From NCBI GenBank assembly GCA_951799425.1, contig OX637391.1:51245069-51309068 (forward strand): DNA of 64,000 bases, in the 5' to 3' direction. The notes beneath the pieces were generated by a model, which made no database searches, was not told where the DNA came from, and saw nothing but the letters and a program-made list of their open reading frames with translations. Every line of letters begins with the position of its first letter. The stretch's first letter is position 1. The DNA comes from Ilex aquifolium (Eukaryota > Streptophyta > Magnoliopsida > Aquifoliales > Aquifoliaceae). Below, piece after piece: positions 5,151 through 55,970 of this stretch. Made by a program: the position numbers and the translations under genes.

Positions 5151-5164
5151 TAAGACTCTGCAAA

Positions 5165-28606: not shown

Positions 28607-29159
28607 GGAATTTTCGGTACCATACTGAAAATTCTTTTTTACAACATTAGTGGTATACAATTTACAACTTCAATGGTATAATTTATTAAATTTATGGATT
28701 ATTTACAACTTTAATGACATTGAAATGACACCGGAAAAGACATTGAAATGACAAGACGAGACATAAAGAAAAATCGTCATTATTGACTTGAGGGCAAAAT
28801 TACAACATTAGTGGAAAGTTTACTACTATAGTGAACAAAATTACAACATTAGTGAAAATTTTATCACTTATAACCTAACCTTAAATGTAGTAATTTTTAT
28901 CCCTTTACCACTTATAACCTAACCTTAAATACTTGCAATTTAACCTTAAATGTAGTAATTTTTCTATATATATTTATAACCTCACTTTCAAAGATAGTAA
29001 TTTTACTTTTAATTGTTATAACCTTACCTAACATTTAATACATAACCTTTAATTGTTGTAACCTAACCTTTAAGAGTTATAACCCCACTTTCAAAGATAG
29101 TAATTTTACTTTTAATTGTTGCAACCTTACCCAACATTTAATACCTACCTCACCCTAAA

Positions 29160-29640
29160 TTAAAATTCATTAAATTAAAATTCATAAAATTCACATTAAA
29201 TTAAAATTCATAAAATTAAAATTAAATTTAAAATTCATAAAATCAACATTAAATAAAAATTCATAAAATCAACAATAAATTAAAATACGTAAAATTAAAA
29301 TTAAATTAAAATCAACATTTAATTTAATGTTAATTTTTTGAATATTCATTTAATTTTAATTTTATGAATTTTAATTTTATGAATTTTAATTTAATGTTAA
29401 TTTTATGAATTTTAATTTTATGAATTTTAATTTTATAAATTTTAATTTTATGAATTTTAATTTTATTTTAAATTTAAGAATTTGAATTTAATTTTAATTT
29501 TATAAATTTTAATTTAATGTTAATTTTATGAATTTTAATTTAATTTTAATGTAATTTAATTTTAATTTTATGAATTTTAATTTAATTTTAATTTTAATTT
29601 TATAAATTTTAATTTAATTTTAATTTTATGAATTTTAATC
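29160..29640. repeat. AAATTCATAAAATTAA / inverse low-complexity tract
   Basis: Runs of AAATTCATAAAATTAA switch to the inverse (TTTTATGAATTTTAATTTAA) near 29,320. This makes a foldback inside copy I. The same tract recurs at 30,355-30,590, 38,790-39,285, 49,600-50,090, 50,745-51,085 and 53,640-54,000. Confidence 0.85.
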
Positions 29641-30589
29641 CATTGAAGTTGTAAATATTGTCATAATTGTCGTAAAAAATCCATTGAAGTTGTAAATATG
29701 GCATACCACATAAAGAATCTATTAAAGTGGTAAATATTCTCATAAAAGTGGTAAATAAACTATTTAAGTTGTATATCTTCTTTCATTAGTCATAACTCTA
29801 GTAAAAACCATTAAAGTGGTAAAAACATTCACAACTCTAGTAAAAAAAATCCATTGAAGTTGTAAATAATCTCATAAATTTAGTAAACATATCACTGAGG
29901 TTGTAAATATTACCACAAATTTGGTAAACATACCACTGAAGTTGTAAATATTACCACAAATTTGGTAAATATACCACTGAAGTTGTAAATATTCTCTTCA
30001 TTATAGTAACAAAATAGTAATCATGATGTACTATTGACATGTCATTTCAATGTCTTGTCTTGTCTACAAATAATCCATTAAAGTTGTAAATCATCCATTA
30101 AAGTTGTAAATAATCCATTCAAGTTGTAAACATATCATTGATCCATTGAAGTTGTAAATATTCCCATTTTTACAACTTCAATGGATTTTTTACCACTAAT
30201 ATTGACAACTTCATGAGGAGATTTGATCGATCGTGCCGAGATTTGATCGATCAAAGTGTTGCAGATATGGAATACTGGGGACATCAGCAACAATTTGATC
30301 GATCAAATATGGTTTTGATCGATCAAATTCAATAACAACTAACTGATTTATCCAATTTAAAATTCATAAAATTAAAATTAAATTAAAATTCATAAAATTA
30401 ACACTAAATTAAAATTCATAAAATTAACACTAAATTAAAATTCATAAAATTAACACTAAATTAAAATCAACATTTAATTTAATGTTTATGTTATGAATTT
30501 TAATTTAATTTTAATTGTATGAATTTTAATTTAATTTTAATTGTATGAATTTTAATTTAATTTTAATTTTATGAATTTTAATTTAATCG

Positions 30590-31320
30590 ATCATGGACTA
30601 GTAATCAATCTACTTTTGGTTGTAAAAATTTCCAAAAATTTGGTAAACAATTCACTAAAGTTGTAAATATTGCCACAAATGTAGTAATGAATCCATTGAA
30701 GTTGTAAATATTCCCACTAATGTTGTAATTTTGTTCTCCTTTTCGGTAAAATACTAGTCCATGATCGATCAAAGCTATATTTGATCGATCATGGAATAGT
30801 AATGAATCCACATTTGGTTGTAAATATACCCATAAATTTGGTAAATATACCACCGAAGTTGTAAATATTCTCATAAATGTAGTAATGAATCCATTGAAGT
30901 TGTAAATATTACTACTAATGTTGTAATTTTGTTCTCCTTTTCGGTATGAAACTAGTCCATGATCGATCAAATATGGTTTTGATCGATCATGGACTAGTAA
31001 TCAATCCACTTTTGGTTGTAAAAATTTTGAAAAATTTAGTAAACAATCCACTAAAGTTGTAAATATTCTCATAAATGTAGTAATGAATCCATTAAAGTAG
31101 TAAATATTCCTACTAATGTTGTAATTTTGTTCTCATTTTCGGTAAAATACTAGTCCATGATCGATCAAAACCATATTTGATCGATCATGGACTAGTAATT
31201 AATCCACATTTGGTTGTAAATATACCCACAAATTTGGTAAATATACCACCGAAATTGTAAATATTCCCACAAATGTAGTAAAAATTTCATTAAAGTTGTA
31301 AATATTACCATAATTGTGGT
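30590..31320. repeat. 198-bp tandem array in copy I
   Basis: The anchor CATGATCGATCAAA begins at 30760, 30958 and 31156, exactly 198 bp apart. Each anchor is the left half of a dyad (CTAGTCCATGATCGATCAAA, a loop of about 6 bp, then the inverse). The same unit is tandem in copy II. Confidence 0.9.
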
Positions 31321-31499
31321 ATGAAATCCTATTTCCACAAATTTGGGGAGATTTGATCGATCAAATCTTCTCAGTACTCTTCCTTCTGATTCACAATAGA
31401 AATAACATGATCGATCAAATATATGTTTGATCGATCGAATTTACTTACCAACGATTTGATCAATCAATATATCTTTCTGATCGATCAAATTCAATTAAA

Positions 31500-33125
31500 A
31501 CTGACTAATTTGTCCAATTAACATTAAATTTCACCAAATCAACAACAAATTAACATTCAATTCATCAAATTAACATTCAATTCATAAAATTAATACTCAA
31601 TTTCATCTAATTAACATTCAATTTTTTCTAATAAGCATTTAATTCAATAAATTAACATTCTAATTCAGCTAGTTAAAATTAAATTAATCAAATAAACTTT
31701 CAATTTCATTCAATTAACACTCAATTCATCAAATTAACATTCAAATTATCAAATTAACATTCAATTTCATCAAATTGACATTCAATTTCATCAAATTAAC
31801 ATGTAATTTCATCAAATCAACACCAAATTAACACCAAATTAACATTCAATTCATCAAATTAGAATTCAATTCATCAACTTAACACTAAATTAACACTCAA
31901 TTTCATCTAATTAACATTCAATTTTTACTAATAAGCATTTAATTCACGAAATTAACATTCGAATTCAACTAGTTAAAATCTCTCCAATCAAATAAACTTT
32001 CAATTTCATTCAATTAACACTCAATTCATCAAATTAGGATTCAAATTATCAAATTAACATTCAAATTTATCAAATTGACATTCAATTTCATCAAATTAAC
32101 AATTAATTTCATCTAATTAACATTCAATTTTTTTTAATAAGCATTTAATTCACGAAATTAACATTCTAATTAAACTAGTTAAAATCTCCCCAATCAAATA
32201 AACTTTCAATTTCATTCAATTAACACTCAATTCATCAAATTAGCATTCAAATTATCAAATTAACATTCAGATTTATCAAATTGACATTCAATTTCATCAA
32301 ATTAACAATCAATTTCATTTAATTAACATTCAATTTTTTTTTATAAGCATTTAATTCACGAAATTAACATTTTAATTCAACTAGTTAAAATCTCCCCAAT
32401 CAAATAAACTTTCAATTTCATTCAATTAACACTCAATTCATCAAATTAGCATTCAAATTATCAAATTAACATTCAGATTTATCAAATTGACATTCAATTT
32501 TATCAAATTAACAATCAATTTCACCTAATTGACATTCAATTTTTTCTAATAAGCATTTAATTCACGAAATTAACATTCAAATTCAACTAGTTAACATTAA
32601 ATTAACCAAATAAACTTTCAATTTCATTCAATTAACACCCAACTCATCAAATTAACATTCAGATTTATCAAATTGATATTCAATTTCATCAAATTAGCAT
32701 GTAATTAACATTTACTTTATCAAATTAACAATCAATTTTATCAAATTAACATTCAATTTTTTCTAATAAGCATTTAATTCACGAAATTAACATTCAAATT
32801 AAACTAGTTAACATTAAATTAACCAAATAAACTTTCAATTTCATTCAATTAACACCCAACTCATCAAATTAACATTCATATTTATCAAATTGATATTCAA
32901 TTTCATCAAATTAACATGTAATTAACATTTAATTTATCAAATTAACAATCAATTTCATCAAATTAACAATCAATTTTTTCTAATAAGCATTTAATTCACG
33001 AAATTAACATTCAAATTCAACTACTTAACATTAAATTAACCAAATAAACTTTCAATTTCATTCAATTAACACCCAATTCATCAAATTAACATTCAGATTT
33101 ATTAAATTGACATTCAATTTCATGT
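31500..33125. repeat. higher-order array of 206-300 bp units
   Basis: The word AAACTTTCAATTTCATTCAA recurs at about 31,694, 31,994, 32,200, 32,406, 32,612, 32,829 and 33,046, giving spacings of about 300, 206, 206, 206, 217 and 217 bp. Within units the words are 20-24 bp variations of AACATTCAATTCATCAAATT. Confidence 0.85.
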
Positions 33126-33164
33126 TAATTTGGTGAATTAAATGTTAATTACATGTTAATTTGA

Positions 33165-35270
33165 TAAAATTGAATGTCAATTTGATAAATCTGAATGTTA
33201 ATTTGATAATTTGAATGTTAATTTGATGAGTTGGGTGATAATCGAATGAAATTGAAAGTTTATTTGGTTAATTTAATGTTAAGTAGTTGAATTTGAATGT
33301 TAATTTCGTGAATTAAATGCTTATTAGAAAAAATTGAATGTTAATTATATGAAATTGATTGTTAATTTGATAAATTAAATATTAATTACATGTTAATTTG
33401 ATAAAATTGAATGTCAATTTGATAAATCTGAATGTTAATTTGATAATTTGAATGTTAATTTGATGAATTGAGTGTTAATTGAATGAAATTGAAAGTTTAT
33501 TTGGTTAATTTAATGTTAAGTAGTTGAATTTGAACGTTAATTTCGTGAATTAAATGCTTATTAGAAAAAATTGAATGTTAATTTGATGAAATTGATTGTT
33601 AATTTGATAAATTAATTGTTTATTACATGCTAATTTGATGAAATTGAATATCAATTTGATAAATCTGAATGTTAATTTGATGAATTGAGTGTCAATTGAA
33701 TGAAAATTGAAAGTTTATTTGGTTAATTTAATGTTAACTAGTTGAATTAGAATGTTAATTTCATAAATTAAATGTTTATTAGAAAAAAATAAATGTTAAT
33801 TAGATGAAATTGATAGTTAATTTGATAAATTAAATGTTAATTACATGTTAATTTGATGATATTATATGTTAATTTGTTGAAATTGAATGTCAATTTGATA
33901 AATCTGAATGTTAATTTGATGAATTGGGTGTTAATTGAATGAAATTGAAAGTTTATTTGGTTAATTTAATGTTAACTAGTTGAATTTGAATGTTAATTTC
34001 GTGAATTAAATGCTTATTATAAAAAAATTGAATGTTAATTAGGTGAAATTGATTGTTAATTTGATAAATTAAATGTTAATTACATGTTAATTTTATAAAA
34101 TTGAATGTCAATTTGATAAATCTGAATGTTAATTTGATAATTTGAATGTTAATTTGATGAATTGGGTGTTAATTGAATGAAATTGAAAGTTTATTTGGTT
34201 AATTTAATGTTAACTAGTTGAATTTGAATGTTAATTTCATGAATTAAATGCTTATTAGAAAAAATTGAATGTTAATTTGATGAAATTGATTGTTAATTTG
34301 ATAAATTAAATGTTAATTACATGCTAATTTGATGAAATTGAATATCAATTTGATAAATCTGAATGTTAATTTGATGAATTGAGTGTCAATTGAATGAAAA
34401 TTGAAAGTTTATTTGGTTAATTTAATGTTAACTAGTTGAACTAGAATGTTAATTTCGTGAATTAAATGCTTATTAGAAAAAAATAAATGTTAATTAGATG
34501 AAATTGATTGTTAATTTGATAAATTAAATGTTAATTTGATGATATTACATGTTAATTTGATGAAATTGAATGTCAATTTGATAAATCTGAATGTTAATTT
34601 GATGAATTGAGTGTTAATTGAATGAAATTGAAAGTTTATTTGGTTAATTTAATGTTAACTAGTTGAATTTGAATGTTAATTTCGTGAATTAAATGCTTAT
34701 TAGAAAAAAATTGAATGTTAATTTGATGAAATTGATTGTTAATTTGATAAATTAAATGTTAATTACATGCTAATTTGATGAAATTGAATATCAATTTAAT
34801 AAATCTGAATGTTAATTTAATGAATTGAGTGTCAATTGAATGAAAATTGAATGTTTATTTGGTTAATTTAATGTTAACTAGTTGAATTAGAATGTTAATT
34901 TCGTGAATTAAATGCTTATTAGAAAAAAATAAATGTTAATTAGATGAAATTGATTGTTAATTTGATAAATTAAATGTTAATTACATGTTAATTAGATGAT
35001 ATTACATGTTAATTTTATGAAATTGAATGTCAATTTGATAAATCTGAATGTTAATTTGATGAATTGGGTGTTAATTGAATGATATTGAAAGTTTATTTGG
35101 TTAATTTAATGTTAACTAGTTGAATTTGAATGTTAATTAGATGAAATTTAGTGTTAATTTGGTGTTAATTTGATGAATTGAATTCTAATTTGATGAATTG
35201 AATGTTAATTTGTTGTTAATTTGGTCTTGATTTGATGAAATTACATGTTAATTGGATTAATTAGTCTGTT
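33165..35270. repeat. inverted higher-order array, right arm
   Basis: The same words in complement (GAATGTTAATTTGATGAATT). It pairs with 31,500-33,125. Confidence 0.85.
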
Positions 35271-35969
35271 TTAATTGAATTTGATCGATCAGAAATATAT
35301 ATTGATCGATCAAATCGTTGGTAAGTAAATTCGATCGATCAAACATATATTTGATCGATCATGTTATTTATATTGTGAATCAGAAGGAAAAGTACTGAGA
35401 AAATTTGATCGATCAAATATCCCAAAATTTGTGGAAACAGGATTTCATACCCCAATTATGGTAATATTTACAACTTCAATGGATTTTTTACTACATTTGT
35501 GGGAATATTTACAATTTCGGTGGTATATTTACCAAATTTGTGGGTTTATTTACAACCAAATGTGGATTCATTACTAGTCCATGATCGATCAAATATGGTT
35601 TTGATCGATCATGGACTAGTATTTTACCGAGAAGGAGAACAAAATTACAACATTAGTGGGAAGTTTACGACTTCAATGGATTCATTACTACATTTATGAG
35701 AATATTTACAACTTTAGTGGATTGTTTACCAAATTTTTGAAAATTTTTACAACCAAAAGTGAATTGATTACTAGTCCATCATCGATCAAATATGGTTTTG
35801 ATCGATCATGGACTAGTATTTTACCGAAAACGAGAACAAAATTACAACATTAGTGGCAATATTTACAACTTCAATGAATTCATTACTACATTTATGTGAA
35901 TATTTACAACTTTAGTGGATTGTTTACCAAATTTTTGAAAATTTTTACAACCAAAAGTAGATTGATAAT

Positions 35970-36900
35970 CCATGATCGATCATATTATATGTTCGATCGA
36001 TCATGACACTCAGGTGTGTTCGTAACTAATAGATAATCCAATAATATATACAAATTTAATGGATCATTTACCACTTTTATGAGAATATTTACAATTATTG
36101 GGGAGAAGCATTTACTAAAGCAATGGTAGTTTTTACAATATTTAATGGTCCATGATCGATCATATTATATGTTCGATCGATCATGACACTCAGGTGAGTT
36201 CGTAACTAATGGATAATCCAATAATATATACAATTTTAATGGATCATTTACCACTATTATGGAAATATTTACAACTATTGGGGAGAAGCATTTACTAAAG
36301 CAATGACAGTTTTTACAATATTTAATGGTCCTTGATCGATCATGGCATATGTTCGATCGATCATGACACTCAGGTGTGTTCGTAACTAATGGATAATCCA
36401 ATAATATATATAATTTTAATGGATCATTTACCACTTTTATGAGAATATTTACAACTATTGGGGAGAAGCATTTACTAAAGCAATGATAGTTTTTACAATA
36501 TTTAATGGTCCATGATCGATCATGGCATATGTTCGATCGATCATGGCACTCAGGTGTGTTCGTAACTAATGGATAATCCAATAATATATACAATTTTAAT
36601 GGATCATTTACCACTTTTATGAGAATATTTACAACTATTGGGGAAAAGCATTTACTAAAGTAATGGTAGTTTTTACAATATTTAATGGTCCATGATCGAT
36701 CATATTATATGTTCGATCGATCATGACACTCAGGTGAGTTCGTAACTAATGGATAATCCAATAATATATACAATTTTAATGGATCATTTATCACTTTTAT
36801 GAGAATATTTACAACTAGTGGGGAGAAACATTTACTAACGCAATGGTAGTTTTTACAATATTTAATGGTCCATGATGGATCATATTATATGTTCGATCGA
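35970..36900. repeat. 180-bp tandem array, five units
   Basis: CCATGATCGATC or a one-base variant begins at 35970, 36150, 36330, 36510, 36690 and 36870, exactly 180 bp apart with no net indel. The units differ at only a few sites, so this is the youngest amplification in copy I. Each unit carries two dyads (ATGATCGATCAT and GTTCGATCGATCATG). Confidence 0.95.
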
Positions 36901-38284
36901 TCAATATGTATTCTGTGATAAAGAAAATTCGAGTTATATGAATTAGATCGATCAAACATAAATTCTAATCGATCATAATGTCACAGTTGCTTCAATCAGA
37001 GTATTAAAAGTACTGTGGCGGTCTGATCGATCGTATAAAAAAATGATAGATCAAATATGTACAAAACTTGAATTTGATCCATCACAGAATACTTATTTGA
37101 TCTATCATTTTTATAAACGATCGATCAGAACGCCACAGTACTAGTTGAATTACAATGTTAATTTTGTGAATTAAATGCTTATTAGAAAAAATTGAATGTT
37201 AATTAGATGAAATTGATTGTAAATTTGATAAATTAAATGTTAATTACATGTTAATTTGATAAAATTGAATGTCAATTTGATAAATCTGAATGTTAATTTG
37301 ATAATTTGAATGTTAATTTGATGAATTGGGTGTTAATTGAATGAAATTGAAAGTTTATTTGATTAGTTTAATTTTAATGTTAATTTTATGAATTTTAATT
37401 TAATTTTAATTTAATGTTAATTTTATGAATTTTAATTTGAATGAAATTGAGAGTTTATTTGATTAATTTAATTTTAACTAGTTGAATTCGAATGTTAATT
37501 TCATGAATTAAATACTTATTAGAAAAAATTGAATGTTAATTAGATGAAATTGTGTGTTAATTTGATATTAATTTTATGAATTGAATTCTAATTTGATGAA
37601 TTGAATGTTAATTTGTTGTTAATTTGGTGTTGATTTGATAAAATTACATGTTAATTGGATTATTTAGTCAGTTTTAATTGAATTTGATCGATCAGAAAGA
37701 TATATTGATCGATCAAATCGTTGGTAAGTAAATTCGATCGATCAAACATATATTTGATCGATCATGTTATTTCTATTGTGAATCAGAAGTAAAAGTACTG
37801 AGAAGATTTGATCGATCAAATCTCTTCAAATTTGTGGAAATAGGATTTCATACCACAATTATGGTAATATTTACAACTTTAATGAATTTTTTACTACATT
37901 TGTGAGAATATTTACAACTTTAGTGGATTGTTTACTACATTTGATCGATCATTACTAGTCCATGATCTATCAGTGGTAATGAATTCATTTTTTGTTGTAA
38001 AAATTTCCAAAAAATTTGTAAACAATCCACTAAAGTTGTAAATATTCCCATAAATGTAGTAATGAATCCATTGAAGTTGTAAATATTGCCACTAATGTTG
38101 TAATTTTGTTAACCTTTTCGGTATGAAACTAGTCCATGATCGATCAAATATGGTTTTGATCGATCAAGAACTAGTAATGAATCCACTTTTCGTTGTAAAG
38201 ATTTCCACACAAATGTGGTAAACAATCCACTAAAATGGTAAATATTCCCTTAAATGTCGTAAAGAATAAATATTTCCACTAATG

Positions 38285-39285
38285 GTATAATTTACTAAAT
38301 TCCCTTTTACTACATCAATGATATAATTTACTAAATTTATGGATTATTTACAACTTCAATGGTATTGAAATGACACCGGACAAGAAATTGAAATGACAAA
38401 ACAAGACATAAAGAAAAGCCGTCATTACTGACTTGAGGGCAAAATTACAAAATTAGTGGGAAGTTTACGACTATAGTGAACAAAATTACAACATTAGTGA
38501 AAATTTTACAACATTAGTGAATAAAATTACAAAATATGTGGGAATGTTTACCAAATTTGTGGGAATATTTACAACTTCAGTGGTATGTTTACTAAATTTG
38601 TAGGAATATTTACAACTCCTGTGGTTTGTTTACCACTAATATTTACAACTTCATGGGGAGATTTGATTGATCGTGGGAAGATTTGATCGATCAAATTGTT
38701 GCAGATATGGAATATCTGGGGATATTAGCAACAATTTAATCGATCAAATATGGTTTTGATCGATCAAATTTAATAACAACTAACTGATTTATTCAATTTA
38801 AAATTCCTAAAATTAAGATTAAAATTATAATTAAAATTCATAAAATTAAAATTATAATATTAAATTAAAATTAAAATTCATAAAATTAAAATTATAAAAT
38901 TAAATTAAAATTAAAATTCATAAAATTAAAATTAAATTAAAATTCATAAAATTTTAATTAAATTAAAATTCATAAAATTAAAATTAAATTAAAATTCATA
39001 AAATTAAAATTAAATTAAATTTAAATTCATAAAATTAACACTAAATTAAAATCAACATTTAATTTAATGTTAATTTTTTGAATGTTAATTTAATTTTAAT
39101 TTTATGAATTTTAATTTTATGAATTTTAATTTAATGTTAATTTTATGAATTTTAATTTTATGAATTTTAATTTTATGAATGTTAATTTAATTTTAATTTT
39201 ATGAATTTTAATTTAATTTTAATTTTATGAATTTTAATTTAATGTTAATTTTATAATTTTAATTTTATGAATTTTAAATGAACAT
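38285..39285. repeat. direct repeat of the left end of copy I
   Basis: Words at 38,320-38,520 (TAAATTTATGGATTATTTACAAC, GACATAAAGAAAA.CCGTCATT) match 28,680-28,860 in the same orientation. Those at 38,650-38,790 match 30,200-30,340. So copy I carries partial direct repeats near both ends as well as the central inversion. Confidence 0.75.
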
Positions 39286-39289
39286 ACTT

Positions 39290-39430
39290 TTTTTTTTTTA
39301 ATTCAATGGTCAGGGATGTTCGAGTCAACTTACGCGCACCTCAACTAATCTCCTATTTGGTTTGGTCAAAGACATATCATTCACGCCGGGACTAGGGTAT
39401 TCATGATCTAACTCCAAAAAATTACAAAAA
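39290..39430. mobile_element. SINE-like repeat with T-tract
   Basis: A T-run is followed by GGTCAGGGATGTTCGAGTCA and ACTTACGCGCACCTCAACTA. The latter is a word familiar from dispersed Au-like plant SINEs (from memory, not checked). CATTCACGCCGGGACTAGGG and TATTCATGA are shared with the copies at 19,640 and (inverse) 5,398-5,430. It abuts the right limit of copy I. Confidence 0.45.
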
Positions 39431-40115
39431 TTCAAAATTAAGATATCTAAATTTACAATTCATCTCTATTACCATTTGAGTTAATCTTTGGAGCTAATGT
39501 TAATGAACAGCCGATCATACATTCACATGGTTCAAATGACATCATGGGCCAAAAAAAAAAAGGTACTATATTCTATTATTATCTAAAAATGTATGAAGAG
39601 TGTCGGGAGACTACACTATCAAAAAATTATTTTGTAATATCGTACTTCTTATTTTTTGTCAATCAGAACATAACACGGTTAGAATAAACGGAAAAAAAAA
39701 ATCAGCAATCAACGATTAGAATGGCTAAAATTTATTTCTTGGTATGACATCGAGAATAATTTTCATACCATAGCTATATCAATGAAAATATATATGTTGT
39801 CTTCTTAATTACCTACAAAATTACTTGCTTTACAATGTGTCTATAAAGTGAATTTTGATGGGTTATATCCGGTTAAAAATTTAACATTAAATGATAACTC
39901 ATTTAATATATTCTCGTCAATGAGTTATCACTATCTGTGCTTGAATGTTGGGGCACTCAAGAATCACATCACCACCTGTTCTTTTTTTTTTTTTTTGGTC
40001 AAAGGACAAACACTACAATTCCACATCACCACCTGTTCTTTGAATGCTCCTTTACAAGTAGAATGTGAAAATTTATAATGGAGAAATACAGTGTCCCACT
40101 TCTTTATGGGATTGC
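39431..40115. other. intergenic, nothing recognised
   Basis: AT-rich. A 14-base word CACATCACCACCTG occurs twice (about 39,966 and 40,022) around a T-run. No gene. Confidence 0.5.
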
Positions 40116-40121
40116 TCATTA

Positions 40122-40440
40122 TGGGAAGAGTAATGTTATGTATCTCAAATCTCTAACTAAAATTTTCATTTCAAATTAAGGGAGATCATTGGATCAATGT
40201 GTCCCATTTAAAAAAATTGATGGGACCCACTCATCAAATGATCTCTCTTCATTTTGGATGAAAATTTGGATTAGAGATTTGAGATACATAGTATTTAAAA
40301 TTTAAATTTGTATTTTAAATGAAGGGGGATCAGTAGGTCCTATCAACTTTTTCAAATGGGACTCACTGATCCAATGGTCCCTCTTCATTTGGGACACAAA
40401 TTTAAATTATAGATTTGAATTACATAAAATTACTCTTCCA
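40122..40440. mobile_element. palindromic MITE, 319 bp
   Basis: The left TGGGAAGAGTAATGTTATGT and the inverse right TGGAAGAGTAATTTTATGTA make terminal repeats. Internal dyads follow (GATCATTGGATCAATG... against GGTCCCTCTTCATTT). Flanks TCATTA and TCATAG suggest a short, diverged target duplication. Non-coding. Confidence 0.6.
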
Positions 40441-40691
40441 TCATAGAAGTAACGGAGTAACAGTTTAAGATAGTATGTGAAAAGGATATGTATCTGTGAA
40501 AGATTCCCCTTTACTAAATTAGAAAGTTTACTTAATTAGAAAGATTTTGGAAAATACTGGGGTAAAAAAATTCGAGTTCGGGTTGGACTAAACAAAAGTT
40601 TTGATAGTTAAAGTCGAGATCTATCACTCAATTTACCTGAGTTGCACCCCTAAATTTGACGGTAATCTTATACATAAATACAAAAATAAAA

Positions 40692-41432
40692 GGATTAATT
40701 ACAAATTGTATCCTGAAAGATCATTCGAATTTTAATTTCTACCCTCAAACATCAAAAATTTTAATTTACACCCTCAAAGATAAAAATTTATATCAATGCG
40801 CATTTGAAACTAACAGTCATCAGTTTACCGTCGAAAACTAAATAGATAAATTATACATAGACCCCCTCATGTTTGTCATTTAATCATTTGAATCCCCCAT
40901 ATTTAGAATATTACTCCTACACCTTCTGACATTTGTACACATATAACACATAACCTTTTATCGTTGATATCTATTAATATAACCGTAAAAAAAAATGATT
41001 TCATCCGAATAAAAAATTATAATTTTCATACTACCCTTTATTTTGTGGCCCGTTATATTCTAAAGTTTAAAATCAAGCTTACTATTTGAATGTTCAATAT
41101 AATACAGGTATTTATATAATGTTCTTTATATTCAATGTAATATACATCACTTCAACAATTATTTAGATGTATTGGGGAACATTTTTAGTCATATTTGGAT
41201 TCTCAAGGGATGTAGGTGTAGTATTTCAAATGTGAGGATCTAGGTAATTAAGTGACAAGTATGAGCGAGTTTAGGTGTAATTTATCCATTTAGTTTTATA
41301 CGGCAACTGTTAACTTCATGTGTGCATTAATACATATTTTTATCTTTAAGGGTGTAAATTGATATTTTTAATCTTTGAGAGTATAAATTAAGATTTGAAT
41401 GATATTACGGGATGGAATTTGAAATTAATCCC
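40692..41432. mobile_element. Mutator-like MITE, 741 bp
   Basis: It begins GGATTAATTACAAATTG and ends with the inverse of GGGATTAATTTCAAATT. Inverted arms run about 170 bp. AAATAAAA flanks both sides (40684-40691 and 41433-41440; a ninth base would mismatch). Copy B of the segmental duplication has the single uninterrupted AAATAAAAC, proving insertion. The long arms and 8-9 bp duplication point to the Mutator class. Confidence 0.8.
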
Positions 41433-41609
41433 AAATAAAACAATTTCTTTGATTCAAAGAACTGACCATGATATTTTAAGATGATATGGGCAGCTTCGAG
41501 CCAGTTCAGATGAGAATGGTAGAATGAAGACCGGCAGCTCATAGGGTGATGGGGATGTCCACCTACCATACTGGATTTAGACCTTCACGAGGTCCCAACT
41601 TCCCTTCGT

Positions 41610-42402
41610 GTATAGTCACCAAAAGGGCGGAGTCAGGAAAATTATTTTTTAAGGTGAGCATATTACCATGTTTTAATTTTTTTTTTTTTTTTTCAATTGG
41701 TAGTAGAAGTTCAGAAAGTTATATTTATTGAAGTTATATTTAATTCTTAAAATTTCAGTAAATATAGAAGATTAAAAATAACATAAACAAAAAAAATTAA
41801 TAATTAAAACTTCTTATAAAAAATGAGACTAATTATTATCACTTACAATTGACACTGATATGTTTTTATTATTTGAAAGAGTTACAAATCAATCTTATCA
41901 ATAATATTTTTTTTATATATAAAATCGTGGTAACAATATTCTATTTATGATCCTATAATTTACTACATAACAATACACATTTTTATACAATAACAAAATA
42001 ACCCTGCAATTTAAAAAGATTACAAAATAACATCAATATGTTCAAAATATAATCGAACATATCTAAAAGTTAACAATAATATTAGTTGCACCTAATTTAA
42101 GATTTAATTGGTGGAGACCCGTTGGTTTGTGACCATTTGACAGATAATGAAGTTTATTAAATATTGAGACTCACTATTAAACTTAATATCACAATGCATT
42201 AGGTCCTTAAATTAGGTGTTAATAACATTATTCGAAAAGTTAACAATCATTTAGGTTATGAGTCTATTCAAATTGATATCATAATAGGGTGGGCACAGTT
42301 ACATATGTCTAAATTTTATTTCAAAAAATACGTCTAATATGAAAGAAAAAAAAATAAGGGGGGACATGTGCCCACCCTAATCCAGGGGTAATTCCGTCCC
42401 TA
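41610..42402. mobile_element. TIR element with GGGCGGAG-type ends
   Basis: Inserted in copy A relative to copy B. The left end AGGGCGGAGTCAGGAAAA faces the inverse of AGGGACGGAATTACCCC at the right. The ends are estimated to within about 10 bp, the target duplication is unclear, and there is no coding capacity. Confidence 0.5.

Positions 42403-42953: not shown

Positions 42954-42994
<41 letters not shown>
42804..42994. repeat. degenerate TG-rich tract running into (GA)n
   Basis: About 150 bp of TGTGTG broken by ATG/TTG, then an uninterrupted GA run (about 42,956-42,994). A short (CT)n run lies at about 42,722-42,738. The long open frame through it is compositional. Confidence 0.9.
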
Positions 42995-43000
<6 letters not shown>

Positions 43001-43009
43001 GAAAGTATT

Positions 43010-44420
43010 GAAACTTGTTCTTCGGAAGTGCTTTAGTGAAGATGTCCGTCACTTGATCCTCCGTCTTGCAATACTTGAGTTGAATCTCATCATCCTCCAC
43101 AGCCTCCCGGATAAAGTGGTGCTTGATTGCAATGTGCTTGGTTCGGCTATGGTAGACAGGATTTTTTGTCATTACTATTGCGGACTTGTTATCACACAAA
43201 ATTGGAATAGGCTCTCCTTGCTTCTCACCAACATCTTCCAAGATTCTCCTTAATCATATTGCTTGTGATGTCGCCAATGATGCCGAAACATATTCAGCCT
43301 CGGCGGATGATTGTGCTACTATTTGTTGCTTCTTAGATGTCCATGAAAAGACACCCAAGCCAAGAGAAAATGCATAACCGGAAGTGCTCTTCATATCATC
43401 CACAAACCCGGCCCAATCACTATCGCAAAATCCAATCAACTTTGCATCCACATTTTTCTCCAAAGCATTGTGACACACATAAAACATGTTCCCATCAACT
43501 TCTTCTTTTTTGGTAAAATTAGCTTGTTGGTTGGTTACCCTACAATCCTTCTTCACATGCCCAAATTTCTTGCAATTGTAACATTGTGGCTTCCCCTTAA
43601 ACCAACAATCTTTCTCCACATGACTACTTCGATTACAAATTTGACACTTTCTTTGGGTGGACTCCTCATTTTCTTGTCTTTGAAAATTCTTCTTGTGAAA
43701 ATTATTTTTTCCTCCTCCTGTTGCATTATCAAATTTACCTTTTCCTTTTCCACCTTCCGATTGATTGAAATTCCAAGAGCTTCCTTGAGTTTTAGAATCA
43801 CTAACATTGAGCTTAGATTGGAAATCACTTTCAAGTGACTTCTCCGTTTGCTTACTCAATCTTTGTTCAAATAATTTAATTGAACCCATCAATTCTTCAA
43901 CACTCAAGGTTTCAATGTCCTTAGTATTTTCAAGAACCGCAACAATGGGGTTAGAGTCCACCGTCAACGTAATTAAAATTTTTCCCACAATTATTTCATT
44001 AGTTATATTATCCCCATGTATTTTCATTTAGTTCACAACTTCCATCAATCTAGAAAAATAATTGCAATACTTCATCATCTTTCACTTTCATATTTTCAAA
44101 ATCTCTCTTACCTTCAAGTTGCCCCGATAATCCTTTTGAAGAATATCTCAAGCATCCTTTGCCTTGGTCTCGTTGATGATCCTCGGAAAAATTTTGTCCG
44201 AAACTCCTTGTTGAATCATTGAGAGAGCTCTTGCATCCTTCTTCTTATGTGCTTTCAATATTTGTTTTTGAGCATCCGTCAAAGAATCGACATCTTCGGG
44301 GTCATCATATCCAGTTTCAACATACTCCTACAAATCATTTGAAATAAGTTGGGTTTTCATTTTCACACACCAAAAATTATAATTCTCACCGTCAAATTGT
44401 GGAAATGAAGGTGGTTGAAC
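43010..44420 (-). mobile_element. Ty1/copia retroelement fossil
   Basis: Read on the minus strand, it retains a gag part with two CCHC zinc knuckles (CQICNRSSHVEKDC and CYNCKKFGHVKKDC) and the copia RNase H end (CDSDWAG, SAEAEYV, KHIAIKHHFIRE, VTDIFTKALP). It is broken, with several breaks, and most of pol is absent. LTRs were not recognised at its edges. It lies between the two copies of the segmental duplication. It is probably old to middle-aged, judging by the decay. Confidence 0.85.
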
Positions 44421-44435
44421 TCCAAAAAAAAAAAA

Positions 44436-46458: not shown

Positions 46459-46855
46459 ACGCTGGGTTTGATTAGGGTACAGAAGAAATAAATTTGGTAT
46501 CGTACTTCTAATTTTTATCATTATAATGGTATTTTTATAATTTTTGTAGATCATTTTATAATTAAAAAAATTATTATTTTTATGGGTATTTTTACTATTG
46601 TTGTGGGTGTTTTTACCACTGTTGTAGATGTTTTTACCACATTTTTTGTAATTATTTTTACCACTTATCTTTGGTACAAAAAAATTTACCACATTTGTGG
46701 GTGTTTTTTTTTACCACATTTGTGGATGTTTTTACCATTATTGTGGTAACTATTTTTACCATTTTTTGGGGTACCATAACTATGGTAAAAATGACCACAA
46801 ATGTGATAAATACAGGTGTGATACCGAAATTTTTTTTGGGTATCATAGTAAAATC
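46459..46855. mobile_element. small TIR element related to the giant elements
   Basis: A 397-bp element between TTAAACG copies (46,452-46,458 and 46,856-46,862). The direct-repeat partner at about 47,354-47,370 shows one uninterrupted TTAAACG. Its ends contain facing TTTGGTATCG and (inverse) TTTCGGTATCA words in loose terminal repeats of about 40 bp. The interior is a 20-22 bp quasi-repeat TTTTTACCACATTTGTGG, the same word style as the giants, and its end words resemble the giants' GGTACCATAC left ends. The superfamily is unclear, and there is no gene. Confidence 0.6.
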
Positions 46856-47487
46856 CTTAAACGTTTTTTCTGCAACATGTCTTATTGCCGTGCGAATTTC
46901 TTTAGAAACAGATAATATTATACAATACGAGTCTAGATGTTACATTCATTTTTTTATAATCTTCTCACTCTTAGTGGTTGGTAAGCCTGTTAAAATCCAT
47001 TAATCGACACGAATTGATACAATTTTAAGCGGATTTGGTTGAAGCCTTAACATGTTCAGGTGGTAAATGGATTGACCTGTCAAACCCGTTTATTAAACGA
47101 GTCGTGTTCGGGTCTCACCTTTACCACCCATTTATCGGTTTAAATAAAATTAATATAATAATTATTATTATTAAAAAAAATTAGCCAAAAAATATATAAG
47201 TCAAAATAACAAAAACATTTCATAATTCCTAACCCTAACCCTATCTCTTCTTCTTGGTCCGCCTCTGCCACTCTCGTCGCTCGTCTCCAACGGAACTGAA
47301 GCCTAAAGGTTTGGCCTCTCTCTCTCTCTCTGCTTGTCGGTCGCCATTGTCGCTAGTCATACTTTAAACGTTTAATGTGCAACATGTCTTATTGTCATGC
47401 GGATTTCTTTAGAAATAGATAATATTATACAACACGGATCTAGGTGTTACATTCACTTTTTTATAATCTTCTCACTCTCAGTGATTG
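46856..47487. repeat. 125-bp direct repeats flanking about 375 bp
   Basis: 46,856-46,980 and 47,354-47,487 share TGCAACATGTCTTATTG, TTTCTTTAGAAA.AGATAATA and ATAATCTTCTCACTCT. The DNA between holds Cryptic 'CGACACGAATTGATAC' and 'AAACGAGTCGTGTTCGGGTC' words typical of hAT-type MITEs and a (CT)n run near 47,320. Confidence 0.75.
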
Positions 47488-47489
47488 CC

Positions 47490-48827: not shown

Positions 48828-49063
48828 TGTCCAAGTACACTAATCAAATCATGATAAGAAATTCTGAAACCCATCACCATGTTTTGGCTGTTGCAGACAA
48901 GAAAGCATCGACTGCTGTTAAGATAAAAAGTGAAGCACAGTTTTGCTTCAATAATGTGCTTACATGCATGATTGTAAGAAGGATAGAACTTTTGGCAAGC
49001 CATAAAGACATTTAGCCTAGCATTTGTGTCTCACATATGGAGCCGACTACGGTACAGCCGATT
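48828..49063. other. short spacer, nothing recognised
   Basis: Small open frames on both strands lack any motif. Confidence 0.5.
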
Positions 49064-51084
49064 GAATTTTTGGTACCATACCAAAAATTTTTTTTTACAA
49101 CATCAATAGTATAATTTATTAAATTTATGGATTATTTACAACTTCAATAACATTGAAATGACATCGGATAAGACATTGAAATGACAAAACAAGACATAAA
49201 GAAAAACCGTCATTATTGACTTAAGGGTAAAATTACAACATTATTGGAAAGTTTATTACTATAGTGAACAAAATTACAACATTAGTGAAAATTTTATCAC
49301 TTGTAACCTAACCTTAAATGTAGTAATTTTTATCCATTTACCACTTGTAACCTAACCTTAAATACTTGCAATTTAACCTTAAATGTAGTAATTTTTCCAT
49401 ATATACTTATAACCTCACTTTCAAAGATAATAATTTTACTTTTAATTGTTATAACATTACCTAACATTTAATACATAATCTTTAATTGTTGTAACCTAAC
49501 CTTTAAAAGAGTTATAACCCCACTTTCAAAAATATTAATTTTACTTTTAATTGTTGTAACCTTACCCAACATTTAATATCTAACCTTTAAGAGTTTGTAC
49601 CTCACCCTAAATTAAAATCCATAAAATTAAAATTAAATTAAAATTCATAAAATTCACATTAAATTAAAATTCATAAAATTTAAATTAAATTTAAAATTCA
49701 TAAAATCAACATTAAATAAAAATTCATAAAATCAACATTAAATTAAAATACGTAAAATTAAAATTAATTTAATTTAATGTTAATTTTTTGAATGTTAATT
49801 TAATTTTAATTTTATGAATTTTAATTTTAATTTTATGAATTTTAATTTAATTTTAATTTTATGAATTTTAATTTTATGAATTTTAATTTTATAAATTTTA
49901 ATTTAATGTTAATTTTATGAATTTTAATTTAATTTAAATTTTATGAATTTTAATTTAATTTTAATTTTATGAATTTTAATTTAATGAATTTTAATTTAAT
50001 GTTAATTTTATGAATTTTAATTTTATGAATTTTAATTTAATTTTAATTTTATAAATTTTAATTTAATGTTAATTTTATGAATTTTAATCCATTGAAATAA
50101 AAAATCCATTGAAGTTGTAAATATTGTCATAATTGTCGTAAAAAATCCATTGAAGTTGTAAATATTCCCATAAAAGTGGTAAATAAACCATTTAAGTTGT
50201 ATATCTTCTTTCATTAGTCACAACTCTAGTAAAAACCATTAAGTGGTAAAAACATTCACAACTCTAGTAAAAAAAATCCATTGAAGTTGTAAATAATCCC
50301 ATAAATTTAGTAAACATACCACTGAGGTTGTAAATATAACCACAAATTTGGTAAACATACCACTGAAGTTGTAAATATTCCCACAAATTTGGTAAATATA
50401 CCACTGAAGTTGTAAATATTCTCTTCATTATAGTAACAAAATAGTAATCATGATGTACTATTGACATGTCATTTCAATGTCTTGTCTTGTTTACAAATAA
50501 TCCATTAAAGTTGTAAATCATTCATTCAAGTTGTAAACATATCATTGAAATGGAAATATTTACAACTTCAATGGATTCTTTACCACTAATACTTATAACT
50601 TAATGGGGAGATTTGATCGATCGTCGGGAGATTTGATCGATCAAATTGTTGCAGATATCGAATATTGGGGACATCAGAAACAATTTGATCGATCAAATAT
50701 GGTTTTGATCGATCAAATTCAATAACAACTAACTGATTTATCTAATTTAAAATTCATAAAATAAAAAATTAAATTAAAATTCATAAAATTAAAATTATAA
50801 AATTAAATTAAATTCAAATTCAAAAAATTAAAATTAAATTAAAATTCATAAAATTAACACTAAATTAAAATTCATAAAATTAACACTAAATTAACATTCA
50901 AAAAATAAACATTAATTTAATTTAATGTTTATTTTTTGAATGTTAATTTAATTTTAATTTTAATTTTATGAATTTTAATTTAATTTTAATTTTATGAATT
51001 TTAATTTAATTTTAATTTTATGAATTTTAATTTAATTTTAATTTTATGAATTTTAATTTAATTTTAATTTTATGAATTTTAATT

Positions 51085-52620
51085 TAATCGATCATGGACT
51101 AGTAATCAATTCACTTTTGGTTGTAAAAATTTCCAAAAATTTGGTAAACAATCCACTAAAATTGTAAATATTCTTATAAATGTAGTAATGAATCCATTGA
51201 AGTTATAAATATTTCCACTAATGTTATAATTTTGTTCTCCTTTTCGGTATGGAACTAGTCCATGATTGATCAAATATGGTTTTGATCGATCATGGACTAG
51301 TAATCAATCCACTTTTGGTTGTAAAAATTTTCAAAAATTTGGTAAACAATCCACTAAAGTTATAATTATTCTCATAAATGTAGTAATGAATCCATTAAAG
51401 TTGTAAATATTCCCACTAATGTTGTAATTTTGTTCTCCTTTTCGGTATGGAACACGTCCATGATCAATCAAATATGCTTTTGATCGATCAAGGACTAGTA
51501 ATCAATCCACTTTTGGTTGTAAAAATTTCCAAAAATTTGGTAAACAATCTACTAAAGTTGTAAATATTCCCATAAATGTAGTAATGAATCCATTGAAGTT
51601 GTAAATATTCCCACTAATATTGTAATTTTGTTCTCCTTTTCGGTATGGAACTAGTCCATGATCGATCAAATATGGTTTTGATCGATCATGGACTAGTAAT
51701 CAATCCATTTTTTGTTGTAAAAATTTTCAAAAATTTGGTAAACAATTCACTAAAGTTGTAAATATTCCCATAAATGTAGAAATGAATCCATTGAAGTTGT
51801 AAATATTACTACTAATGTTGTAATTTTGTTCTCCTTTTCGGTATGAAACTAGTCCATGATCGATCAAATATGGTTTTGATCGATCATGGACTAGTAATCA
51901 ATCCACTTTTGGTTGTAAAAATTTCCAAAAATTTGGTAAACAATCCACTAAAATTGTAAATATTCCCATAAATGTAGTAATGAATCCATTGAAGTTGTAA
52001 ATATTACCACTAATGTTGTAATTTTGTTCTCCTTTTCGGTATGGAACTAGTCCATGATCGATCAAATATGGTTTTGATCGATCATGGACTAGTAATCAAT
52101 CCACTTTTGGTTTTAGAAATTTCCAAAAATTTGGTAAACCATCCACTAAAGTTGTAAATATTCCCATAAATTTAGTAATGAATCCATTGAACTTGTAAAT
52201 ATTTCCACTAATGTTGTAATTTTGTACTCCTTTTCGGTATGGAACTAGTCCATGATCGATCAAATATGGTTTTGATTGATCATGGACTAGTAATCAATCC
52301 ACTTTTGGTTGTAAAAATTTCCAAAAATTTGGTAAACAATACACTAAAGTTGTAAATATTCACATAAATGTAGTAATGAATCCATTAAAGTTATAAATAT
52401 TTCCACTAATGTTGTAATTTTGTTCTCCTTTTCGGTAAAATACTAGTCCATGATCGATCAAAACCATATTTGATCGATCATGGACTAGTAATGAATCCAC
52501 ATTTGGTTGTAAATATACCCACAAATTTGGTAAATATACAACCGAAATTGTAAATATTCCCACAAATGTAGTAAAAAATTCATTAAAGTTGTAAATATTA
52601 CCATAATTGTGGCATGAAAT
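51085..52620. repeat. 198-bp tandem array, seven anchors in exact register
   Basis: CATGAT(C/T)(G/A)ATCAAA begins at 51261, 51459, 51657, 51855, 52053, 52251 and 52449, each exactly 198 bp apart. Each carries the dyad CTAGTCCATGATCGATCAAA / inverse with a short loop. Substitutions are scattered but no indels accumulate. Confidence 0.95.
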
Positions 52621-52829
52621 CCTATTTCCACAAATTTGTGGAGATTTGATCGATCAAAACCTTATTTGATCGGTCAAATCTTCTCAGTACTTTTACTTCT
52701 GATTCACAATAGAAATCAATAATAACACGATCGATCAAATATATGTTTGATCGATCGAATTTACTTACCAACGATTTGATCGATCAATATATCTTTCTGA
52801 TCGATAAAATTCAATTAAAACTGACTAAT

Positions 52830-55430
52830 TAATCCAATTAACATTAAATTTCATCAAATCAACACCAAATTAACAACAAATTAACATTTAATTCATCAAA
52901 TTAAAAATCAATTCATAAAATTAACACCAAATTAACACTCAATTTCATCTAATTAACATTTAATTTTTTGTAATAAGCATTTAATTCACGAAATTAACAA
53001 TCGAATTCAACTAGTTAAAATTAAATTAATCAAATAAACTTTCAATTTCATTCAATTAACACTCAATTCATCAAATTAACATTCAAATTATAAAATTAAC
53101 ATTCAATTTATCAAATTGACATTCAATTTCATCAAATTAACAAGTAATTTCATCAAATCAACACCAAATTAACAACAAATTAACATTCAATTCATCAAAT
53201 TAGAATTCAATTCATAAAATTAACACCAAATTAACACTCAATTTCATCTAATTAACATTCATTTTTTTCTAATAAGCATTTAATTCAGGAAATTAACATT
53301 CGAATTCAACTAGTTAAAATTAAATTAATCAAATAAACTTTCAATTTCATTCAATTAACACTCAATTCATCAAATTAACATTCAAATTATCAAATTAACA
53401 TTCAATTCATCAAATTGACATTCAATTTCATCAAATTAACAAGTAATTTCATCAAATCAACATCAAATTAACTACAAATTAACATTCAATTCATCAAATT
53501 AGAATTCAATTCATAAAATTAACACCAAATTCACACTCAATTTCATCTAATTAACATTAAATTTTTTGTAATAAGCATTTAATTCACGAAATTAACATTC
53601 GAATTCAACTAGTTAAAATTAAATTAATCAAATAAACTTTCAACTAAAATTAAATTAAAATTCATAAAACTAACATTAAATTAAAATTCATAAAATTAAC
53701 ATTAAATTAAAATTCATAAAATTAAAATTAAATTAAAATTCATAAAATTAAAATTAAATTAAAATTCATAAAATTAAAATTAAATTAAAATTCATAAAAT
53801 TAACACTAAATTAAAATTCATAAAATTAACACTAAATTAAAATTCATAAAATTAACACTAAATTAAAATTCATAAAATTAACACTAAATTAAAATTCTAA
53901 AAATTAAAATTAACATTAAAATTCTTAAAATTAACATTAAATTAAAATTCATAAATTTAAATTTAAATTTAAAATTCATAAAATCAACATTAAATACTTA
54001 TTAGAAAATCAATATTACTTCTTGTAAAATGCTTATTAGAAAAAATTGAATGTTAATTAGATGAAATTGATTGTTAATTTGATAAAATTGAATTTCAATT
54101 TGATAAATCAGAATGTTAATTTGATAATTTGAATGTTAATTTGATGAATTGAGTGTTAATTGAATGAAATTGAAAGTTTATGTGGTTAATTTAATGTTAA
54201 CTAGTTGAATTTGAATGTTAATTTCGTGAATTAAATGTTTATTAGAAAAAATTGAATGTTAATTAGATGAAATTGATTGTTAATTTGATAAATTAAATGT
54301 TAATTACATGCTAATTTGATGAAATTGAATATCAATTTGATAAATCTGAATGTTAATTTGATGAATTGAGTGTCAATTGAATGAAAATTGAAAGTTTATT
54401 TGGTTAATTTAATGTTAATTAGTTGAATTAGAATGTTAATTTCGTGAATTAAATGCTTATTAGAAAAAATTGAATGTTAATTAGATGAAATTGATTGTTA
54501 ATTTGATAAATTAAATGTTAATTTTATAAAATTGAATGTCAATTTGATAAATCGGAATGTTAATTTGATAATTTGAATGTTAATTTGATGAATTGGGTGT
54601 TAATTGAATGAAATTGAAAGTTTATTTGGTTAATTTAATGTTAACTAGTTGAATTTGAATGTTAATTTCGTGAATTAAATGCTTAATAGAAAAAATTGAA
54701 TGTTAATTAGATGAAATTGATTGTTAATTTGATAAATTAAATGTTAATTACATGCTAATTTGATGAATTGAATGTTAATTTGTTGTTAATTTGGTGTTGA
54801 TTTGATGAAATTATATGTTAATTTGATGAAATTGAATGTCAATTTGATGAATTGAATGTTAATTTGATAATTTGAATGTTAATTTGATGAATTGAGTGTT
54901 AATTGAATGAAATTGAATTTTTATTTGATTAATTTAATTTTAACTAGTTGAATTCGAATGTTAATTTCCTGAATTAAATGCTTATTAGAAAAAATTGAAT
55001 GTTAATTAGATGAAATTGAGTGTTAATTTGGTGTTAATTTTATGAATTGAATTCTAATTTGATGAATTGAATGTTAATTTGTTGTTAATTTGGTGTTGAT
55101 TTGATGAAATTACATGTTAATTTGATAAAATTGAATGTCAATTTGATAAATCGGAATGTTAATTTGATAATTTGAATGTTAATTTGATGAATTGAGTGAT
55201 AATTGAATGAAATTGAAAGTTTATTTGATTAATTTAATTTTAACTAGTTGAATTTGAATGTTAATTTATTGAATTAAATGCTTATTAGAAAAAATTGAAT
55301 GTTAATTAGAAGAAATTGAGTATTAATTTGGTGTTAATTTTATGAATTGAATTTTAATTTGATGAATTGAATGTTAATTTGTTGTTAATTTGGTGTTGAT
55401 TTGATGAAATTTAATGTTAATTGGATTAAT
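52830..55430. repeat. inverted higher-order arrays of copy II
   Basis: On the left, the word ATAAACTTTCAA recurs at about 53,035, 53,334 and 53,633 (299-bp units). On the right, from about 54,010, the inverse words GAATGTTAATTTGATGAATT dominate. The two arms are separated by the AAATTCATAAAATTAA spacer rather than a tight loop. Confidence 0.85.
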
Positions 55431-55970
55431 TAGTCAGTTTTAATTGAATTTGATCGATCAGAAAGATATATTGATCGATCAAATAGTTGGTAAGTAAATT
55501 CGATCGATCAAACATATAGTTGATCGATCATGTTATTATTGATTTCTATTGTGAATCAGAAGTAAAAGTATTGAGACGATTTGATCGATCAAATAAGGTT
55601 TTGATCGATCAAATCTCCCCAAATTTGTGGAAATAGGATTTCATACCACAATTATGGTAATATTTACAACTTTAATGAATTTTTTACTACATTTGTGAGA
55701 ATATTTACAACTTCGGTTGTATATTTACCAAATTTGTGGGTATATTTACAACCAAATGTGGATTCATTACTAGTCCATGATCGATCATAGACTAGTATTT
55801 TACCGAAAAGAAGAACAAAATTACAGCATTAGTGTAAATATTTACAACTTCAATGGATTCATTACTACATTTATGGGAATATTTACAACTTTAGTGGATT
55901 GTTTACCAAATTTTTGGAAATTTTTACAACCAAAAGTGGATTGATTACTAGTCCATGATCAAATTGAAAC

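What the first reader, a model, noticed from the sequence alone, without database searches (positions are those of the whole stretch)
28607..55970. Two giant, non-coding, hierarchically repeated elements of one undescribed-looking family
Copies I (about 10.7 kb) and II (about 6.9 kb) share the left end, module order and orientation, yet hold no gene. They combine a 22-26 bp quasi-word, exact 180- and 198-bp units, 206-300 bp higher-order units and a large central inversion. Satellites are normally tandem and locus-bound and MITEs are short; this is satellite-like structure in a dispersed, bounded element. I do not recognise a named family with this architecture.
Basis: partly seen in the sequence, partly recalled or inferred. 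Interest (0 to 1): 0.85.

Follow-up and report, generated by a model that had tools for sequence, protein, structure and literature searches.

The report
Non-coding foldback Mutator-like jumping elements
The two big repeat-filled stretches are damaged copies of a plant "jumping DNA" family that carries no gene of its own and was probably moved by much larger relatives, about 30 to 46 thousand bases long, that encode the mover enzyme.

Summary
The repeats are real, but this is not a new kind of element. Both copies are right-truncated members of a non-autonomous, foldback-type Mutator-like (MULE) family in an 800-Mb plant genome. Two terminal 23-mers (A, B) occur 67 and 127 times at up to 3 mismatches (reversed-pattern controls 3 and 1). 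Of 34 inverted pairs 2.1-12.1 kb apart, 23 have an exact 9-bp target-site duplication; mismatched flank pairs give 0 of 1640. Of seven more pairs, three do. Related termini bound seven tested giants of 29.5-46 kb (6 of 7 with exact duplications), each holding a copy of a FAR1/MULE/SWIM transposase ORF. The one giant read whole has inverted arrays of copy I's ~180-bp GATCGATC unit (88% over 866 bp). The "central inversion" is most simply where left- and right-arm arrays meet after loss of a coding middle. Trans-mobilisation and array function are inferred. Foldback MULEs with repeat-filled arms are known (Tetris, Tm1), so this is a new member; the size of its coding partners is the most notable point.

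The parts
28583..39277 (+). Copy I: right-truncated non-autonomous foldback-type MULE (A end on the left; right end missing)
   Evidence: Terminal 23-mer exact at 28583-28605; reverse-oriented blocks of 87-93% to C1:12814329-12824399, stopping about 540-560 bp short of its B end
28583..28605 (+). Type A terminal 23-mer GGACCAGGCTACAATACATACAA
   Evidence: 67 genome sites at <=3 mismatches against 3 for the reversed pattern
28608..28634 (.).
   Evidence: same position next to the terminal 23-mer in the giants' and short copies' ends aligned
30581..31308 (+). 198-bp unit array (3.7 copies) of copy I
31546..33119 (+). Left half of the inner array: ~21-bp quasi-word in 206/217-bp units
33153..35212 (-). 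Right half of the inner array: inverted counterpart, ~218-bp units
   Evidence: GC skew flip
35969..36903 (-). 180-bp unit array (5.2 copies) shared with the giant MULE read in full
   Evidence: TRF period 180; 88% over 866 bp to the right subterminal array of giant C3:25659977-25689876
49039..55970 (+). Copy II: right-truncated non-autonomous foldback-type MULE (B end on the left)
   Evidence: Listed as C1:51294107 with 2 mismatches to the type B 23-mer; 87-89% to C13:16602834-16610516; no right terminus found in window
49039..49061 (+). Type B terminal 23-mer of copy II
   Evidence: 127 genome sites at <=3 mismatches, giants included, against 1 for the reversed pattern
49064..49090 (.). Subterminal near-palindrome of copy II
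51083..52607 (+). 198-bp unit array (7.7 copies) of copy II
52832..53708 (+). 299-bp units, left half of the inner array of copy II
54434..55426 (-). 300-bp units, inverted right half of the inner array of copy II
   Evidence: skew flip near 54.0 kb

Best explanation
Copies I and II are right-truncated, non-autonomous members of a foldback-type Mutator-like DNA transposon family. An intact member is about 2-12 kb: a 23-bp terminal repeat (type A or B), a 27-bp near-palindrome, then arms packed with GATCGATC-bearing tandem units (about 180 and/or 198 bp) and an AT-rich inner array that is inverted about the middle. It has no gene. It moves by cut-and-paste with a 9-bp staggered cut (shown by target-site duplications), using in trans the transposase of giant MULEs (29.5-46 kb) with a FAR1-type MULE transposase, related terminal sequences and, in the one giant read in full, the same ~180-bp unit as inverted subterminal arrays (shared sequence shown; mobilisation in trans inferred). 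The arrays most likely began as subterminal binding-site clusters of a giant ancestor; loss of the coding middle brought the two inverted arrays together, and slippage or unequal exchange expanded them into nested units (inferred).
For: Constant ends: 67 type A and 127 type B sites, controls 3 and 1. Exact 9-bp duplications in 23 of 34 inverted pairs; 0 of 1640 mismatched flank pairs reach 9; in 3 of 7 further pairs, plus one exact 10-bp and one exact 8-bp duplication. Full copies: C13:16602834-16610516 has inverted arms of ~2.04 kb at 90%, C5:33604505-33610306 arms of 1.37 kb at 86%; the latter has no ORF of 100 aa. Giants: an 801-aa ORF with MULE (1.7e-26), FAR1 (7e-22) and SWIM; 20 of the 40 scored copies of that ORF have a type B end on the proper side and in the proper orientation (within 45 kb upstream or 25 kb downstream), against a mean of 0.18 and a maximum of 2 in 200 random placements; 7 of the 40 have both ends. 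Each of seven giants with both ends holds one such copy and 6 of 7 have an exact 9-bp duplication. First ~50 bp shared by giants and short copies. 180-bp array of copy I 88% over 866 bp to the giant's right array. In the giant read in full, all 70 GATCGATC sites lie within 3.2 kb of the left end or 2.9 kb of the right end.
Against: 11 of 34 pairs lack an exact 9-bp duplication: two have 8 of 9, one fits an 8-bp duplication, and two share the same flanks and so are duplicates of one locus. The window copies cannot show a duplication of their own because their right ends are gone; the only exact copy of copy I's left 9-mer found at 38000-42500, at 40272, has no terminus beside it. 20 of the 40 transposase copies have no listed B end. 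None of the 67 A ends lies within 60 kb of any of the 40 transposase copies, so no giant with a type A end was seen. Beyond ~50 bp the giants' terminal sequence differs from that of the short copies; only 3600 of 10,695 bp of copy I and 2454 of 6932 bp of copy II match the giant, in its terminal arrays, and the inner AT-rich arrays mostly do not, so the giant read is a relative, not the direct parent. The self-comparison of C1:12814329-12824399 showed no arm pair running from its very ends. No binding, expression or excision was tested.
Confidence: 0.9

Rival explanations
1. Local satellite expansion or assembly artefact: two local arrays that arose in place by duplication.
For: Tandem structure on several levels; both lie within 28 kb in the same orientation.
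Against: Copy I is nearer to elements on C13 (88%) and at C1:12.8 Mb (87-93%) than to copy II (85%); ends recur on many chromosomes; exact 9-bp duplications.
Confidence: 0.02
2. Same kind of element, but mobilised by a different MULE lineage that shares the termini, not by the FAR1-type giants seen here.
For: Shared sequence between short copies and the giant read is limited to ~50 terminal bp and the subterminal units. Of 1566 first-look MULE candidates only 150 were scored, and of 212 candidates for the giant ORF only 40, so other lineages could be hidden. No A end lies near the 40 transposase copies.
Against: Type B ends flank 20 of 40 FAR1-type transposase copies, and some giant ends match short-copy ends in nearly all of the first 38 bp.
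Confidence: 0.2
3. The arrays serve chiefly anti-silencing: a VANC-like protein encoded by the giants binds the repeated motif and keeps giants and short copies hypomethylated.
For: [quoted passage not shown] The giant carries two ORFs with weak DUF1985 similarity, below Pfam's cut-off, and a motif confined to its termini.
Against: No VANC homologue was identified; the DUF1985 hits are sub-threshold; VANDAL transposases were not compared.
Confidence: 0.15
4. Helitron or another superfamily.
For: Palindrome near the end; AT-rich non-coding interior.
Against: Long inverted arms, 9-bp duplications and linkage to a MULE transposase.
Confidence: 0.01

Closest known systems
Tetris (Drosophila virilis foldback element, which its authors suggest belongs to Mutator; PMC4079207, passages read)
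   Same: Non-coding foldback, modular structure with internal tandem repeats, 8-10 bp duplications, repeats that act as satellite seeds
   Different: No autonomous partner was found for Tetris; here giants with a transposase ORF and related ends are in the same genome
Tm1 (Meloidogyne Mutator/Foldback; PMC3169594, passages including part of the abstract read)
   Same: Mostly 9-bp duplications, composite arms with a repeated short motif, two different terminal motifs (A1 and A2) generally at opposite ends, elements with and without a transposase
   Different: Short ~14-bp motif and an animal host; here nested 180-300 bp units
FARE (Arabidopsis) and SoFT (Solanaceae) foldback elements (FARE paper and Rebatchouk and Narita 1997 seen only as citations; content and the name SoFT recalled)
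   Same: Plant foldback elements with long inverted arms made of sub-repeats (recalled)
   Different: Sequence not compared; FARE paper not held
Jittery-like MULEs of grapevine (PMC2528002, section 8 read)
   Same: MULE subfamily with large members (Jitvine-2, 14.4 kb); 9-nt duplications in grapevine MULEs where found
   Different: The largest MULE in that table is 17.7 kb; the giants tested here are 29.5-46 kb; that table gives no TIR for Jitvine-1 and -2. Kinship of the transposases was not tested by a tree
VANDAL21 / VANC system (PMC5735166, passages read)
   Same: Transposon with tandemly repeated protein-binding motifs in non-coding parts
   Different: No VANC gene identified here; other motif

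Membership tests
Mutator-like elements (MULEs) | 9-bp (8-11) target-site duplication | tested here: met
   Exact 9 bp in 23 of 34 pairs, control 0 of 1640, in 3 of 7 further pairs, and in 6 of 7 giants
Mutator-like elements (MULEs) | Terminal inverted repeats | tested here: met
   Inverted terminal 23-mers in pairs; arms of 2.04 and 1.37 kb in two full copies; in the third full copy no arm pair running from the very ends was found
Mutator-like elements (MULEs) | Transposase of the MULE DDE family in the family or in its partner | tested here: met
   801-aa ORF with MULE domain in a giant with related ends; catalytic residues not checked; that it serves the short copies is inferred
Foldback-type elements | Long arms containing tandem sub-repeats and a non-coding middle | tested here: met
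   met in two of three copies read whole
FARE / SoFT families | Sequence homology to those families | not tested
   No sequence of them was at hand; FARE paper not held
Jittery / FAR1 lineage of MULEs | Transposase with N-terminal FAR1 domain, MULE core and SWIM, grouping with Jittery in a tree | tested here: inconclusive
   Domains present; no tree was built
VANDAL with VANC anti-silencing | VANC gene and binding of repeated motifs | tested here: inconclusive
   Two sub-threshold DUF1985 hits only
Satellite DNA | Locus-bound tandem array without element ends | tested here: not met

The most novel reading that the evidence does not exclude
A two-part transposition system in which very large MULEs (up to 46 kb, beyond the sizes seen in the sources read here) carry inverted ~180-bp satellite-like arrays at both ends, and gene-free elements made only of such arrays and the ends spread as their parasites, so that satellite units are dispersed by transposition and co-evolve with the DNA-binding protein that reads them (transposase or a VANC-like protein).
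Probability: 0.3. Interest if true: 0.65.

Novelty: new member of a known kind. Interest (0 to 1): 0.45.

Why it matters
It places a puzzling class of non-coding repeat blocks in a known transposon superfamily and links it to candidate partners in the same genome, which the authors of Tetris did not find for theirs. Candidate MULE partners of 29.5-46 kb, with transposase ORFs up to 99% identical between loci, bear on the supposed size limit of cut-and-paste transposons (the review PMC6431247, passages, says efficacy drops above 6 kb of cargo). The family would also be a test case for how transposons seed satellites.

Tried and rejected
Satellite or assembly artefact: rejected by dispersed copies with target-site duplications. 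A single 32.5-kb element at C7:36198187-36230711 with duplication ACCAAATCC: rejected, because 36224728 has the same left flank, so this looks like a tandem duplication of a locus holding a ~6-kb element. Right end of copy I at the exact 9-mer at 40272: rejected, no terminus beside it. CACGCGC (a FHY3/FAR1 binding motif, recalled) in the giant and the window copies: absent. A 2.5-kb sample at C7:36214000-36216500 had no frame above 97 aa.

Rows not in the count of 34: ends fetched for C7:34570867 and C7:39850727 (left terminus missing or cut), C7:4224266 (right flank not fetched) and C7:36198187 (duplicate of the counted C7:36224728).

Literature: the listings (the first 20 shown where more were found, as; 0 papers) show no title or abstract start that describes a MULE of 29 kb or more or this family; only open-licence papers are held, so this is weak evidence of absence. 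Papers PMC9168764 and PMC3310237 were opened at their outline and abstract only and carry no claim here. Not done: the host species was not identified; no transposase tree; catalytic residues not checked; interiors of the giants other than C3:25659977-25689876 not read (the 44-46 kb ones may hold nested insertions).
Full report
WHAT WAS CHECKED. The window lies at C1:51245069-51309068 of an 800-Mb genome in 103 contigs. It is taken for a plant from its genes: the window holds an aromatic amino acid lyase and transketolase exons, and the genome has FAR1-type MULEs; the species was not identified. The 180-bp array (35969-36903) was found in copy I only. The units are not exact (94-97% for 180 bp, 86-96% for 198 bp). 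The one frame of 150 aa or more in the copies is a by-product of the 180-bp period.

ENDS. Copy II starts with a second terminus, type B, GGAGCCGACTACGGTACAGCC (window 49039). Genome-wide, 67 sites match the A 23-mer and 127 the B 23-mer with up to 3 mismatches; the reversed patterns give 3 and 1. The B sites include ends of giants.

TARGET-SITE DUPLICATIONS. I examined 34 pairs of inverted termini 2.1-12.1 kb apart (lengths). In 23 of 34 the 9 bases outside the left end equal the 9 bases outside the right end. Among 1640 mismatched pairings of the same flanks (seven giants included) none reaches 9 and two reach 8. Of the 11 others, two have 8 of 9, one fits an 8-bp duplication, two are duplicates of one locus with the same flanks, and six show no clear duplication. 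End types among the 34: A with A in 12, A with B in 17, B with B in 5 (counted from the listing). Seven further pairs of B ends visible were checked at the end: three exact 9-bp duplications, one exact 10-bp, one exact 8-bp, two none; together 26 of 41 have exactly 9. For most pairs only the ends were read.

FULL COPIES. Three copies were read whole: C13:16602834-16610516 (7683 bp, arms ~2.04 kb at 90%), C5:33604505-33610306 (5802 bp, arms 1.37 kb at 86%) and C1:12814329-12824399 (10,071 bp, inverted internal arrays but no arm pair found from the very ends). The C5 copy has no ORF of 100 aa; ORFs of the other two were not listed. Samples of 2.0-2.3 kb from the middle of four more copies had longest frames of 67-110 aa. 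Copy I aligns to the C1 element in reverse blocks of 87-93% and stops about 540-560 bp before its B end; nothing like the missing outer part was found between copy I and copy II. Copy II matches the C13 element at 87-89% on the left, but no right terminus was found for it in the window. So both window copies are right-truncated, and copy I is no nearer to copy II (85%) than to elements elsewhere.

PARTNERS. A Pfam MULE search (150 of 1566 candidates scored) and the B-end search pointed to the same places. In C3:25659977-25689876, a 29,900-bp element with B-like ends at both sides and an exact 9-bp duplication, an 801-aa ORF has MULE, FAR1 and SWIM domains. A search with this ORF's DNA scored 40 of 212 candidates; all 40 are 90% identical or more, and 13 of the 39 besides the query are 98-99% identical, one of these over part of the query only. 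20 of the 40 have a B end on the proper side and in the proper orientation among the 100 B sites listed (of 127 counted); random placements give a mean of 0.18 and a maximum of 2 in 200 trials, four contig lengths being approximate. Seven giants with both ends, 29.5-46 kb, each hold one of the 40 copies and were tested for duplications: 6 of 7 exact. None of the 67 A ends lies within 60 kb of any of the 40 copies. Only the C3 giant was read in full. It has inverted arrays of a 179-bp unit (359-bp higher-order unit) at 1362-2445 and 27818-29566. Its right array is 88% identical over 866 bp to copy I's 180-bp array. All its 70 GATCGATC sites lie at 432-3166 or 27027-29454. Its other ORFs include a Transposase_32 domain, an Mpo1-like fragment and two weak DUF1985 matches below the cut-off (four ORFs scanned). 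The first ~50 bp of giants and short copies align; beyond that they differ. The five short elements compared match the giant only in its terminal arrays; 3600 of 10,695 bp of copy I and 2454 of 6932 bp of copy II are so matched, in the 180- and 198-bp regions and smaller stretches, while copy I's inner AT-rich arrays (positions 2746-6858) are not.

HOW IT WORKS. Shown: constant inverted ends, 9-bp duplications, lack of coding in what was read, related ends and a shared array unit with transposase-bearing giants. Inferred: cut-and-paste in trans by the giants' transposase; arrays as binding sites; origin of the inverted middle by loss of the coding core of a giant-like ancestor followed by expansion of the array units. 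Not shown: that any copy moves today. The direct parent was not found, and no giant with an A end was seen.

KNOWN RELATIVES. Foldback MULEs with tandem repeats in the arms are known: Tetris (PMC4079207, passages) and Tm1 (PMC3169594, passages with part of the abstract), which also has two different terminal motifs. FARE and the plant foldback paper of 1997 were seen only as citations. In the grapevine survey (PMC2528002, section 8) the largest MULE is 17.7 kb and the largest Jittery-like family 14.4 kb. The giant-transposon review (PMC6431247, passages) says none of the Pack-MULEs of Jiang et al. 2004 exceeded 7 kb and that DNA transposition efficacy drops above 6 kb of cargo. The MULE survey PMC6446971 (passages) says the elements in its set have TIRs of 14-500 bp. 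So the window copies are a new family of a known kind; the unusual points are the arms of up to 2 kb, the nested satellite-like units and the size of the coding partners.

Noticed in passing
46464-46860: A ~400-bp AT-rich block between the two copies with TTTACCACATTTGTGG-like quasi-words and GGTATC/GATACC motifs near both sides; weak matches to copies I and II (top matches 32-71 bp at 73-88%), none to the giant. Possibly a short relative of the family.
   Followed up: partly
G000 C3:25659977-25689876 (L109, L110, L111, L150-L152): Giant 29.9-kb FAR1-type MULE with a Transposase_32 ORF and an Mpo1-like gene fragment, i.e. a possible gene-capturing giant MULE; six similar ones of 29.5-46 kb were located by their ends and transposase copies.
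   Followed up: partly
G000 C7:36198187-36230711: Apparent tandem duplication of a locus with one family member together with its flanks, each left flank ending in ACCAAATCC.
   Followed up: partly
G000 C9:24562705-24826052: Three A ends share the same outer flank (aacaattagatc), each with a B end 6-24 kb to the left, suggesting segmental duplications that carry one family member.
   Followed up: no
10323-10491: A 30-bp tandem repeat (5.6 copies, 96% matches) next to the transketolase exons.
   Followed up: no
43254-44027: Open frame with a CCHC zinc knuckle and copia-like polyprotein pieces (label from reading the sequence), probably a retroelement remnant.
   Followed up: no
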